Shown here: positions 31,293 to 35,119 of the stretch, piece after piece
Position numbering within the stretch: position 1 is the stretch's first letter
Layout of the letters: each line of letters begins with the position of its first letter
Assembly: GCF_008329945.1 (NCBI RefSeq)
Contig: NZ_CP035807.1
Coordinates: 2,914,001 to 2,978,000, forward strand
DNA length: 64,000 bases
Direction: 5' to 3'
Source of the DNA: Thiospirochaeta perfilievii
GTDB taxonomy: Bacteria > Spirochaetota > Spirochaetia > DSM-2461
Translations under genes and position numbers: made by a program
The notes under the pieces: generated by a model
Told to the model about the DNA's origin: nothing
What the model saw: the letters and a program-made list of their open reading frames with translations, nothing else
Database searches by the model: none

Positions 31293-31514
31293 ATGAGAGA
31301 TATAGAAAAGTGTGTAATTTGCAATAACGAGATCACAAATACTATGGTATTATGTCCAAACTGTGGGAACGTTATAAACAGAGCAGATTACAGTGAAAAT
31401 AGGGTAAAGTATAATTACACCCTAGATAAAAATATAGAATCCCTAGAAAAAATTGATATGGCATTATGCCATTTAGAAGAGGAGTTAGATGCCTTTTTGT
31501 GTAAAAAAAGATAG
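31293..31514 (+). CDS. Small zinc-ribbon protein
   Basis: 73 aa with a four-cysteine zinc ribbon, CVICNNE at residues 7-13 and CPNCGNV at 21-27, followed by a charged helical region ending in LCHLEEELDAFLCKKR. Promoter-like TTGCAT at 31258-31263 and TATAAT at 31281-31286 (17-base spacer) put the expected transcription start at or next to the ATG, so the message may be leaderless. It precedes fliS by 134 bases. Function unknown; a nucleic-acid or protein-binding adaptor is possible. Confidence 0.6.
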   Translation: MRDIEKCVICNNEITNTMVLCPNCGNVINRADYSENRVKYNYTLDKNIESLEKIDMALCHLEEELDAFLCKKR

Positions 31515-31648: not shown

Positions 31649-32068
31649 ATGAGGCGAGGGGCATTAAACTCATATAAAGAGACTAAGGTAACTACTGCAA
31701 CACAGAGTAAGTTAATTATAATGTTATATGATGAGGTTATAAAACAGATTACTATTGGTGTTGAAGCAGTAAAAACCAAAAAAGCAAAGGATGTTTCACA
31801 CAACGCTTTTGTAAAATCCCAGGATTGTATATCGGAGCTTATGGTCTCCCTGGATCTTGAGAAGGGTGGTGATATAGCCCAAAACTTATTTAGCCTGTAT
31901 AACTATTTTAATAGGGAGTTATTGGAAGCTAATACTAGTGGGAAAATAGAAAAAGCACTTGATGTACAGAGTATGATGAAAGAGTTAAGATCGTCTTGGG
32001 TCTCTATCTCTGGTACCACTGAACATGAAACAACTCCGGATAGAGTAGGAATAAATATCGCTGGATAG
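31649..32068 (+). CDS. fliS: Flagellar secretion chaperone FliS
   Basis: 139-aa helical protein of the FliS family, the cytosolic chaperone for flagellin export. Diagnostic runs are NSYKETKVTTATQSKLIIMLYDEVI (start residue about 7) and a C-terminal amphipathic region with LRSSWVSI. AAGGAGGTCCT precedes the ATG. Upstream is a sigma28-like promoter. It overlaps the start-less reading frame that follows, which lies in the +1 frame. No flagellin or FliD gene is in this window. Confidence 0.9.
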   Translation: MRRGALNSYKETKVTTATQSKLIIMLYDEVIKQITIGVEAVKTKKAKDVSHNAFVKSQDCISELMVSLDLEKGGDIAQNLFSLYNYFNRELLEANTSGKIEKALDVQSMMKELRSSWVSISGTTEHETTPDRVGINIAG

Positions 32069-32441
32069 ATTAGAAGTTTTAGAAGAGAGGGTTTTTAAAT
32101 CCATAGAGGAGTATAAAACCCTAATTATTTCCCTTAAAAAATCATTTAAAACAAAAAACACAGATCAGATAACCTTTTTACAGCTAAAAGAGAAGGAACT
32201 ATTAAAAACCCTAACTAGACGGGTAAAACTCTATAACAGCTATATTAAGGATCAGAAACTACCTCCTGGGGATATAAATAATCGATTAATTGAATTAAAC
32301 TCATATATAAAAAATATTAGAGACGAGCTAATATTAGATAAAGAGATATTAAAAACAGAAATTTCCAGGGTTAATAAAGTTGTAAGACCCCTTGGGAAAG
32401 GACGTGACTATACCGCAGGGAGGATAGATATAACTACATGA
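32061..32441 (+). CDS. Hypothetical helical protein lacking a canonical start codon (FlgN/FliT-like?)
   Basis: The frame is open from 32055 (a TAA lies at 32052-32054) to TGA at 32439-32441 and contains no ATG, GTG or TTG at all. I list it from CTG at 32061, 10 bases after an AGGA; an ATA at 32055 is another option. The 126-residue peptide is Met-free, Leu/Glu/Lys-rich and strongly helical (LDRLEVLEERVFKSIEEY at the start), ending in GKGRDYTAGRIDITT. Its stop forms an ATGA overlap with polA, as real coupled genes do here. A flagellar chaperone of FlgN/FliT type is a guess from fliS context. A frameshift fusion to FliS is also possible. Confidence 0.5.
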   Translation: MDRLEVLEERVFKSIEEYKTLIISLKKSFKTKNTDQITFLQLKEKELLKTLTRRVKLYNSYIKDQKLPPGDINNRLIELNSYIKNIRDELILDKEILKTEISRVNKVVRPLGKGRDYTAGRIDITT

Positions 32442-35119
32442 GCAACAAGGAACCTTTATATATATTAGATGGATACGCTATTATCTTTAGATCATATTAT
32501 GCATTTATAAATAGACCATTAAAAAATAGCCAGGGTAACAATATAAGTGCTATTTTTGGATTTTATAGAACACTTTTTAATTTTTTTAAGACCTATAAAC
32601 CAAAGAATTTTATTGTAGCCCTAGATAGTAAGGGCCCAACCTTTAGAAGTGATATATTCCCGGAGTATAAGGCAAATAGATCCCCTGCTCCAGAGGACTT
32701 AATAGCCCAATTTCCTATAATAATAAACATATTAGAGGAGCTTAATATCCCCTCTGTAGGGTTAGTTGGTTATGAGGCCGATGATATTATAGGAACCCTT
32801 GCATCCCGGTGCGAAAAAGAGTCTAGGCAGTGTTTTATTATTTCTGGGGATAAGGACTTAATGCAGTTAATATCGGACAATGTAACCCAGTTAATTCCTG
32901 ATGGTAAAGGAAGTTATACCGTATTTGATAGTAAAAAAGTATTTGAAACAAAGGGAGTACACCCAAATCAAATAATTGACTACCTATCTCTTATGGGGGA
33001 TTCTGCAGATAATATTCCCGGGGTTAAGGGTATAGGAGAGAAGACCGCAGGTAAACTTTTAGACCAATTTAAAACTCTTGAGAACCTGTATGCTAATATT
33101 GAAAATGTTAAAGCTAAGGGGCAAAGAGAGAAGTTAATAAATGGAAAAGAGAGTGCTTTTTTAAGTAAAAAACTTGTTGTATTAGACTTAAATACCCCAA
33201 TTGACATTGAACCTAAAGACTGTATTCTCCCTGAAATTGATGGGAAGCTAAGCCAGGAGCTATTCGCTGCCCAGGGAATTAATGCCGTATCCCCAGGTGG
33301 AACTTCTTCTAATGAGAAACCTAAAGAAGAGGGTAAAAAGGGTAGTTATAAGGTAATTCTGGATAAAGATGAGTTAGATTTAGTTATTAATAAAGCTATT
33401 GAGAGTAAAATTGTAGCATTTGATTGTGAGACTGACTCTTTAGATGCTATAAGTGCAAACCCTGTAGGGTTTTCAATATCATTTGTTAAAGAAGAGGCCT
33501 ACTATATTCCTTTAAAAGCAAAGGGGTGTGAACCACTTGAAGAGGAAGTAGTTAAAGATGCCCTTAAAAAACTGTTTAATAGTGCCCAGATTGTAGGGCA
33601 AAATATAAAGTATGACTATAAGGTTTTAGCTAAATGGGGTCTTAATATAAAGAATATTATTTTTGATACAATGGTCGCAGCCTGGATATTAGACTCATCT
33701 ATTACAAGCTACTCAATGGATAGTTTAGCAAAGAGTAGACTTAATTATACCACAGTAGCATTTAAGGATATTGTTCCAAAAAATGGTGTTTTTAGTGATG
33801 TCCATATAGATTTAGCTACAGAGTATGCAGCAGAGGATGCTGATATAACATATAGATTATACCTTGATATGGTAGATGATCTAGATAGGGATGCAACACT
33901 TAAAAAATTACTTTATAACATTGAAATACCTCTAATTAATATTTTAGCGAATATGGAGATTGAGGGGGTTTTATTAGATGGGGAGAACCTTAATAACTTC
34001 TCAAAAGAGTTAGAGAATAGTATTAAAGAGTGCGAAAAAGAGATTTTTAACATATGTGGAAAAGAGTTTAATATAAGCTCTACTAAGCAGTTACAGGAAG
34101 TTCTGTTTGAAGATAGGGGACTTACTCCTATTAAAAAAACAAAGACCGGTTACTCTACAGATACAGCGGTTTTAGAGCAGTTGGCTAAAGAGGATGTTGT
34201 TCCAGAAAAAATTATAGAGTACCGTGGTTTATCTAAACTTAAATCAACTTATGCTGATGCCCTACCTAAACTAATAAATAACAGAACAGGAAGGGTTCAT
34301 ACCCACTTTTTACAAACAGGAACAGCTACTGGTCGATTAAGTAGTAAGGATCCTAACCTACAAAATATTCCGGTAAAGGATGATAGGGGAAGACGTATAA
34401 GGTCAGCCTTTGTTCCAACGCCAGGTAAAGTATTTTTGTCCGCCGACTATTCACAAATTGAGCTTGTTGTTCTTGCCCACCTTTCTAAAGACCCGGGGTT
34501 AGTTAGTGCCTATAATAATGGAAGGGATATTCACACCCAGACTGCGGCAATTATTAACCAGGTAGAATTAGAAGATGTAACACCTGGAATGAGAAGAGTC
34601 GCTAAAACTATTAACTTTGGTGTAATGTATGGAATGAGTGCTTTTAGGTTATCTAACGAGTTAGAGATTCCAAGAAAGGCAGCAGCAGATTTTATTAATA
34701 GATATTTTACAGAGTTTGCGGGTATTAAAACCTTTATGGATGAGACCCTTCTAGAGGCGGAAGAGCACGGTTATGTATCAACAATTTTAGGTAGAAAAAG
34801 GGTTTTACCTGGTATAACAAGTAGTAATAAAATGGTTAAGGCTGGTGCCCAAAGAGCAGCTGTAAACAGTGTTGTTCAAGGTTCCGCAGCCGATATTATG
34901 AAGCTTGCTATGTTAGAAATAAACAAGAGAATAAAAGAGGAGTGTCCAAACTCTAAAATGGTTCTACAGGTACACGATGAGTTTATCTTTGAGGCGAACT
35001 TAGATGAGGTGGAAATATTAAGATCCCTTGTTAAAGAGTCTATGGAGGGGGCGTATAAGCTAATTGTGCCCCTTACATCCTCAATTGAGACTGGTAATAA
35101 TTGGGGGGATATTCATTAA
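32438..35119 (+). CDS. polA: DNA polymerase I
   Basis: 893 aa, replication and repair polymerase. The N-terminal 5'-3' exonuclease (about 1-290) has LDGYAIIFRSYYAF and SGDKDLMQL; the 3'-5' exonuclease (about 305-490) keeps FDCETDS, NIKYDYKVL and YAAEDADITYRLY, so proofreading looks intact. The polymerase domain has TGRLSSKDPNLQNIP, motif A ADYSQIEL, motif B RRVAKTINFGVMYG and motif C QVHDEFIF. Motif A reads ELVVLAHLS where most family members have Arg after IEL. The start overlaps the preceding frame as ATGA, and the stop overlaps coaE. Confidence 0.96.
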   Translation: MSNKEPLYILDGYAIIFRSYYAFINRPLKNSQGNNISAIFGFYRTLFNFFKTYKPKNFIVALDSKGPTFRSDIFPEYKANRSPAPEDLIAQFPIIINILEELNIPSVGLVGYEADDIIGTLASRCEKESRQCFIISGDKDLMQLISDNVTQLIPDGKGSYTVFDSKKVFETKGVHPNQIIDYLSLMGDSADNIPGVKGIGEKTAGKLLDQFKTLENLYANIENVKAKGQREKLINGKESAFLSKKLVVLDLNTPIDIEPKDCILPEIDGKLSQELFAAQGINAVSPGGTSSNEKPKEEGKKGSYKVILDKDELDLVINKAIESKIVAFDCETDSLDAISANPVGFSISFVKEEAYYIPLKAKGCEPLEEEVVKDALKKLFNSAQIVGQNIKYDYKVLAKWGLNIKNIIFDTMVAAWILDSSITSYSMDSLAKSRLNYTTVAFKDIVPKNGVFSDVHIDLATEYAAEDADITYRLYLDMVDDLDRDATLKKLLYNIEIPLINILANMEIEGVLLDGENLNNFSKELENSIKECEKEIFNICGKEFNISSTKQLQEVLFEDRGLTPIKKTKTGYSTDTAVLEQLAKEDVVPEKIIEYRGLSKLKSTYADALPKLINNRTGRVHTHFLQTGTATGRLSSKDPNLQNIPVKDDRGRRIRSAFVPTPGKVFLSADYSQIELVVLAHLSKDPGLVSAYNNGRDIHTQTAAIINQVELEDVTPGMRRVAKTINFGVMYGMSAFRLSNELEIPRKAAADFINRYFTEFAGIKTFMDETLLEAEEHGYVSTILGRKRVLPGITSSNKMVKAGAQRAAVNSVVQGSAADIMKLAMLEINKRIKEECPNSKMVLQVHDEFIFEANLDEVEILRSLVKESMEGAYKLIVPLTSSIETGNNWGDIH

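What the first reader, a model, noticed from the sequence alone, without database searches (positions are those of the whole stretch)
32055..32441. A 126-codon gene with no ATG, GTG or TTG between fliS and polA
Seen: the frame is open for 128 codons, overlaps the fliS end in the +1 frame, and its TGA overlaps the polA ATG as ATGA, the coupling seen between real genes in this window. The peptide is helical and Met-free. No common start codon exists in the frame. Options: rare start (CTG at 32061 or ATA at 32055), a +1 frameshift from fliS giving a FliS-fused chaperone, or a sequencing error or decayed start. Flagellar chaperone identity is inferred from context.
Basis: partly seen in the sequence, partly recalled or inferred. 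Interest (0 to 1): 0.72.

Follow-up and report, generated by a model that had tools for sequence, protein, structure and literature searches.

The report
Conserved flagellar gene lacking normal start
Between two ordinary genes, a sulfur spirochaete and its relatives keep a real flagellar-chaperone-like gene that, in two of three species, has none of the usual start signals; it most likely begins at a rare CTG codon inside the end of the preceding gene, made by the ribosome that has just finished that gene.

Summary
Window 32055-32441 (Thiospirochaeta perfilievii P) is a 128-codon stop-to-stop frame with no ATG, GTG or TTG; it overlaps the end of fliS in the +1 frame, and its TGA overlaps the polA ATG. 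It is a real gene: two congeneric genomes keep fliS-ORF-polA at 46-51% protein identity with near-saturated synonymous sites, and 42 of 48 other Spirochaetia fliS loci have a helical protein gene there, usually ending in (I/V)D(I/V)xx; some hit Pfam FlgN. One congener also has no canonical start near its N-terminus (first: a TTG about 110 codons in). The other has an ATG and a TTG in frame inside fliS. Sequencing error and simple decay are therefore unlikely.

The only near-start codon shared by all three before the conserved helix is CTG 32061. It lies at an 8-nt overlap with fliS, the third commonest overlap in prokaryotes. The conserved FliS ending Ala-Gly-stop limits a start there to CNG. 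Other lineages use TTG one codon upstream, where the overlap allows TNG. Best explanation: termination-reinitiation from fliS at CTG. A +1 frameshift giving a FliS fusion is less likely but not excluded. No protein-level evidence exists; FliT/FlgN identity is inferred.

The parts
31649..32068 (+). fliS, upstream gene; ends GINIAG then TAG
   Evidence: Pfam FliS 3.8e-33; C-terminal G(I/V)N(I/L)AG-stop conserved in most Spirochaetia examined
32055..32441 (+). open frame without any ATG/GTG/TTG (stop to stop), +1 relative to fliS
32061..32441 (+). proposed coding sequence of a FliT/FlgN-like flagellar chaperone, 126 codons from CTG plus stop
   Evidence: conservation in G001/G002, pN/pS, family alignment and profile match, three-helix model
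32061..32063 (+). CTG, proposed start codon; 8-nt overlap with fliS (CTGGATAG)
   Evidence: only near-cognate codon shared by all three species before the conserved helix; -8 is the third commonest overlap in prokaryotes (PMC10666635)
32057..32068 (+). ATCGCTGGATAG, read in two frames, identical in the three species
   Evidence: only 27 of 77 other conserved fliS residues keep one codon in all three
32047..32050 (+). AGGA, weak Shine-Dalgarno-like core 10 nt before CTG (GGGA in congeners)
   Evidence: sequence inspection; not tested
32093..32128 (+). possible RNA hairpin AGGGUUUU ... AAAACCCU, 24 nt after the fliS stop
   Evidence: predicted in all three species, weak z-scores -0.7 to -2.1; a lead only
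32438..35119 (+). polA; its ATG overlaps the ORF stop as ATGA, conserved in congeners

Best explanation
The ORF is a genuine gene for a FliT/FlgN-like flagellar chaperone. It is translated by termination-reinitiation: ribosomes that finish fliS at TAG 32066-32068 step back about 2 nt and restart at CTG 32061 with initiator tRNA, then couple again into polA through ATGA. The start is a non-canonical CTG because it lies inside the codons for the conserved FliS C-terminus Ala-Gly, which restricts an 8-nt-overlap start to C-N-G; CTG is the only near-start codon of that form. A weak start here would keep the chaperone scarce relative to FliS. Shown: gene conservation, absence of canonical starts, geometry, class-wide synteny. 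Inferred: that CTG is used, the coupling, chaperone function and the dosage effect.
For: Frame, synteny and missing start recur in G002 (51% protein identity; TAA two codons before TCG CTG, first canonical codon TTG at +325). Synonymous sites are near saturation (pS 0.60-0.71) while pN is 0.34-0.35. Codons 2-4 (TCG CTG GAT) and 6 (TTA) are identical in all three, and Arg5 is kept. The fliS-overlap 12-mer is fully conserved where only 35% of conserved fliS residues keep one codon. CTG gives an 8-nt overlap, third commonest after -4 and -1. With CTG as start, predicted helix 1 (residues 3-31, block pLDDT 90-97) is complete. Independent lineages L075, L086 and L087 have as their only nearby canonical start a TTG at an 11-nt overlap in the same +1 frame, where the Ile codon allows T-N-G. 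Bacterial genes with ATT and GTC starts are established (PMC5472188).
Against: No proteomics or ribosome profiling. CUG is about 0.024% of bacterial starts and 0.86% as efficient as AUG (PMC11497404), and the initiator tRNAs here have the normal GGG/CCC anticodon stem, so no special tolerance is evident; I found no report of reinitiation at CTG. Only three genomes carry this form, and the third (G001) has an in-frame ATG at -41 and TTG at -20 that it could use. TCG before CTG is also conserved although Ile ATC is only 9.7% of Ile codons here; this could hint that the frame is translated further upstream, though ATC is common at this fliS position class-wide. The Shine-Dalgarno-like site is weak.
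Confidence: 0.6

Rival explanations
1. A programmed +1 frameshift in the last codons of fliS (32055-32068) makes a minor FliS-chaperone fusion protein; no separate start is used.
For: The frame is open only from 32055, just overlapping the fliS end; the overlap 12-mer is invariant, including the rare Ile codon ATC whose alternatives would give TTG or a TAG stop in the +1 frame.
Against: No codon in AAT-ATC-GCT-GGA-TAG allows the P-site tRNA to re-pair after a +1 step, and there is no prfB-like upstream Shine-Dalgarno at the right distance (inspection). FliS has a conserved C-terminus in most of the class and the gene has its own start elsewhere. The predicted hairpin begins 24 nt after the stop, not at the usual stimulator distance.
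Confidence: 0.13
2. Another non-canonical start deeper in the frame is used, for example the Ile codon 17 (ATA/ATA/ATT), giving a shorter protein.
For: Near-cognate in all three; a purine-rich GAGAGG-like stretch lies upstream in two of them.
Against: Codons 2-16 are conserved as protein, with synonymous change at Leu9 (TTA/CTC/TTA) and Ser16 (TCC/TCT/TCT); starting at 17 cuts predicted helix 1 in half; the spacing from the purine stretch is long and part of it lies in a predicted hairpin.
Confidence: 0.1
3. The ancestral start was the ATG at -41 (or TTG at -20) inside fliS, still open in G001; in T. perfilievii and G002 it is cut off by stops, so the gene is poorly expressed or dying there.
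For: G001 keeps an open frame from that ATG; the same ATG triplet is present in the other two, followed by in-frame TAG and TAA (window) or TAA (G002).
Against: The two cut-off copies still have intact 128-codon frames, pN well below pS and the C-terminal motif, at high divergence. The ATG arises from fliS codons that are kept for FliS, so its presence is not independent evidence.
Confidence: 0.1
4. Sequencing or assembly error hides a normal start.
For: PacBio-only assembly of the window genome (PMC7380536).
Against: Coverage 176x; the invariant junction is seen in two independent metagenome assemblies and is start-free in one of them.
Confidence: 0.02

Closest known systems
FlgN (PF05130) / FliT (PF05400) flagellar type III export chaperones
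   Same: Small helical protein next to fliS, the position fliT has in fliDST operons (general knowledge); 10 of 34 orthologues at this locus hit FlgN, 2 hit FliT weakly; three-helix bundle model
   Different: The window protein hits neither model; a separate FlgN gene next to a flgK-like gene exists in G002, so this is the fliS-linked one; substrate unknown
Bacterial genes with non-canonical starts: infC (ATT), sigR (GTC)
   Same: A conserved gene whose start is not ATG/GTG/TTG; low-efficiency initiation possibly used for dosage (PMC5472188)
   Different: Here CTG within the upstream gene, with no strong Shine-Dalgarno (sigR has AGGAGGTG); start identity forced by overlap with a conserved protein end; infC itself appears to start with TTG in this genus
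Termination-reinitiation (TeRe) at overlapping gene pairs
   Same: 8-nt overlap is the third commonest arrangement (PMC10666635); experimental coupling at short overlaps (PMC6728339)
   Different: Described pairs use canonical starts; a CTG restart is not described in the passages I read
Programmed +1 frameshifting such as prfB
   Same: Downstream frame is +1 and open only at the overlap
   Different: No slippery re-pairing, no positioned Shine-Dalgarno, and a conserved terminating FliS end

Membership tests
FlgN/FliT-like flagellar chaperone | Sequence match of the window protein to Pfam FlgN or FliT | tested here: not met
   Window protein: none; 10 of 34 orthologues at the locus match FlgN
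FlgN/FliT-like flagellar chaperone | Homology to the fliS-linked spirochaete family | tested here: met
   hhalign A2 vs A7 E 9.3e-6, probability 83, nearly full length including the IDI C-terminus; weaker vs the FlgN-hitting group A6, E 0.004, probability 8
FlgN/FliT-like flagellar chaperone | Helical-bundle fold close to a solved FliT/FlgN | tested here: inconclusive
   Three-helix bundle, pLDDT 87; PDB search no hit below E 0.001, FliT 3h3m at E 2.2
FlgN/FliT-like flagellar chaperone | Binding to FlgK/FlgL or FliD | not testable with these tools
   needs pull-down or knockout
Gene with non-canonical start codon | No ATG/GTG/TTG available at the start | tested here: met
   also in G002, but not in G001
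Gene with non-canonical start codon | Initiation at the stated codon shown by protein data | not testable with these tools
   no proteomics or ribosome profiling available
Translational coupling by termination-reinitiation | Overlap or near-contact of stop and start | tested here: met
   CTGGATAG, 8 nt, if CTG is the start
Translational coupling by termination-reinitiation | Dependence of downstream translation on upstream termination | not testable with these tools
   needs reporter assay
Programmed +1 frameshift | Slip site that re-pairs in +1, plus stimulators | tested here: not met
   inspection of AAT ATC GCT GGA TAG and congeners; some known +1 sites do not need re-pairing, so this lowers but does not exclude it

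The most novel reading that the evidence does not exclude
A conserved overlap has trapped a gene's start at CTG: the invariant FliS C-terminus (Ile-Ala-Gly-stop) allows only T-N-G or C-N-G in the +1 frame, so this genus relies on reinitiation at CTG, and selection keeps it weak (Ile stays ATC, although ATT would create a TTG start) to hold a flagellar chaperone at a low fixed ratio to FliS.
Probability: 0.3. Interest if true: 0.7.

Novelty: new variant of a known kind. Interest (0 to 1): 0.5.

Why it matters
Gene finders assume ATG/GTG/TTG, so conserved genes with other starts are missed or misplaced. This locus is a conserved case in which a reason for the odd start can be read from the sequence: the overlapping FliS ending forbids normal start codons at that spot. 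It makes it testable whether a ribosome that has just terminated can restart efficiently at CTG, a codon that de novo initiation nearly rejects, and whether such starts set protein ratios in flagellar assembly.

Tried and rejected
ATA 32055 as start: ACA in both congeners. Altered initiator tRNA (C30-G40 type): two Met-CAT tRNA genes in this genome carry the normal GGG/CCC stem. Genome-wide use of odd starts: none of the other 34 start-free frames in 464 kb is a free-standing gene. Named-genome scan with the ORF profile found no relatives; with FliS it found only the same two MAGs; the order search held only the same 26 genomes as the family. Ribosome-termination-structure reading of the hairpin: such structures are reported to inhibit reinitiation and to lie right at the stop (PMC7518266), so the hairpin 24 nt downstream is not claimed as one. 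PDB fold search gave nothing significant. In one search the first protein was mistyped by me and must be ignored; hold the correct scans.

Full report
Identity of the sequence. The genome holding the window has two contigs, total 3,700,583 bases, contig 1 being 3,667,739 bases. These are the sizes of the chromosome (3,667,739) and plasmid (32,844) of Thiospirochaeta perfilievii P, CP035807/CP035808, a closed PacBio assembly at about 176x (PMC7380536). The two congeneric genomes are MAGs: G001 = contig JAFGYD010000153.1 (ZodW_Metabat.93) and G002 = QKAW01000058.1 (SZUA-382), identified by matching contig lengths.

The observation. The frame runs from after TAA 32052-32054 to TGA 32439-32441, 128 codons, with no ATG, GTG or TTG. 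It overlaps fliS (31649-32068) in the +1 frame and shares ATGA with polA. In 464 kb of this genome there are 35 start-free frames of at least 90 codons, and the other 34 all lie over longer genes. The codon score is that of a real gene (0.127 per codon against 0.173 +/- 0.070 for genes and 0.021 mean for the other start-free frames). No terminator-like site lies between 31500 and 32700.

It is a conserved gene. G002 and G001 carry fliS-ORF-polA with proteins 51% and 46% identical to the window's. Synonymous differences are near saturation (pS 0.60-0.71), nonsynonymous 0.34-0.35. I looked at the stretch after fliS in 48 further Spirochaetia loci. In 42 a single small helical protein gene sits there, often just before polA and usually ending (L/F/Y)(I/V)D(I/V)xx, like GRIDITT here; in two more it looks split. 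A canonical start is available in all of these. The genus profile matches a set of them (E 9.3e-6, probability 83). Ten of 34 members hit Pfam FlgN and two FliT at E up to 0.1; the window protein hits neither. AlphaFold gives a three-helix bundle, mean pLDDT 87, helix 1 beginning two residues after the CTG; PDB comparison is uninformative. A separate FlgN lies before a FlgK-like gene in G002, so the fliS-linked protein is more likely FliT-like; this is inference from position.

The missing start is conserved, with a caveat. In G002 a TAA lies two codons before TCG CTG, and the first canonical codon is a TTG 325 nt after the fliS stop; in G001 the frame stays open upstream and includes ATG at -41 and TTG at -20 inside fliS. 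So two of three species have no canonical start, and the third may. Error and decay are poor explanations for the two.

Why CTG. In all three species the ORF reads (ATA/ACA) TCG CTG GAT AGR TTA. ATA is not conserved; CTG is the only shared near-cognate before the conserved helix. CTGGATAG is an 8-nt overlap; -4, -1 and -8 are the commonest distances in 2.66 million gene pairs (PMC10666635), and short overlaps couple translation (PMC6728339). FliS ends in a conserved (I/L)AG-stop in most of the class. In the +1 frame an 8-nt-overlap start is then the second and third base of Ala plus the first base of Gly, that is C-N-G, and an 11-nt one is T-N-G. In L075, L086 and L087 the Ile codon is ATT and the only nearby canonical start is that TTG. 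In this genus Ile is ATC, giving TCG, and Ala is GCT, giving CTG. This geometric argument is mine; it explains why the start cannot drift to ATG without changing FliS.

Doubts. CUG is very poor, 0.86% of AUG, and 0.024% of bacterial starts (PMC11497404). The initiator tRNAs look normal, so no special tolerance is evident. The upstream TCG is conserved although ATC is only 9.7% of Ile codons; this could reflect translation upstream of CTG (frameshift), avoidance of a stronger TTG start, or simply the class-wide frequency of ATC at this fliS position. With three genomes these cannot be separated. The +1 frameshift has no obvious slip site. A hairpin AGGGUUUU/AAAACCCU at 32093-32128 is predicted in all three species, but its z-scores are weak, and reported structures after stop codons inhibit reinitiation (PMC7518266), so I do not build on it.

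Verdict. A genuine, conserved flagellar-chaperone-like gene without a canonical start in two of three species; reinitiation at CTG is the best reading (0.6), unproven at the protein level. Interest is moderate: the kind (odd start, coupled overlap) is known, and the trapped CTG restart is a new variant if confirmed.

Noticed in passing
L042 and L049 (G055, G030; fliS junction): In this other family the fliS-linked gene is also in the +1 frame, and the only start near its beginning shared by both is an ATG about 35 nt inside fliS; L042 alone also has a GTG at +37. Another candidate for an unusual start.
   Followed up: partly
L033 (G013) and L035 (G052), after fliS: The fliS-linked gene looks split: an N-terminal part ends at a stop and the rest continues further on. 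Frameshift or draft error.
   Followed up: no
L075, L086, L087 (and possibly L056): Only nearby canonical start is a TTG overlapping the fliS end by 11 nt in the +1 frame, repeated in separate families (L056 has further upstream candidates).
   Followed up: partly
32093-32128: Hairpin AGGGUUUU/AAAACCCU with invariant codons AGG GTT TTT and ACC in all three congeners; weak folding z-scores.
   Followed up: partly
G000 contig 1, about 185873-189130, 217927-218397 and 270823-271242 (first 400 kb): Coding-looking frames whose first canonical start comes late (82, 113 and 124 codons in), perhaps truncated or frameshifted genes.
   Followed up: no
L112-L114 (infC): infC in this genus seems to start with TTG rather than the ATT known from E. 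coli.
   Followed up: no
31293-31514: Small ORF with a zinc-ribbon-like N-terminus just upstream of fliS (weak Pfam matches only).
   Followed up: no
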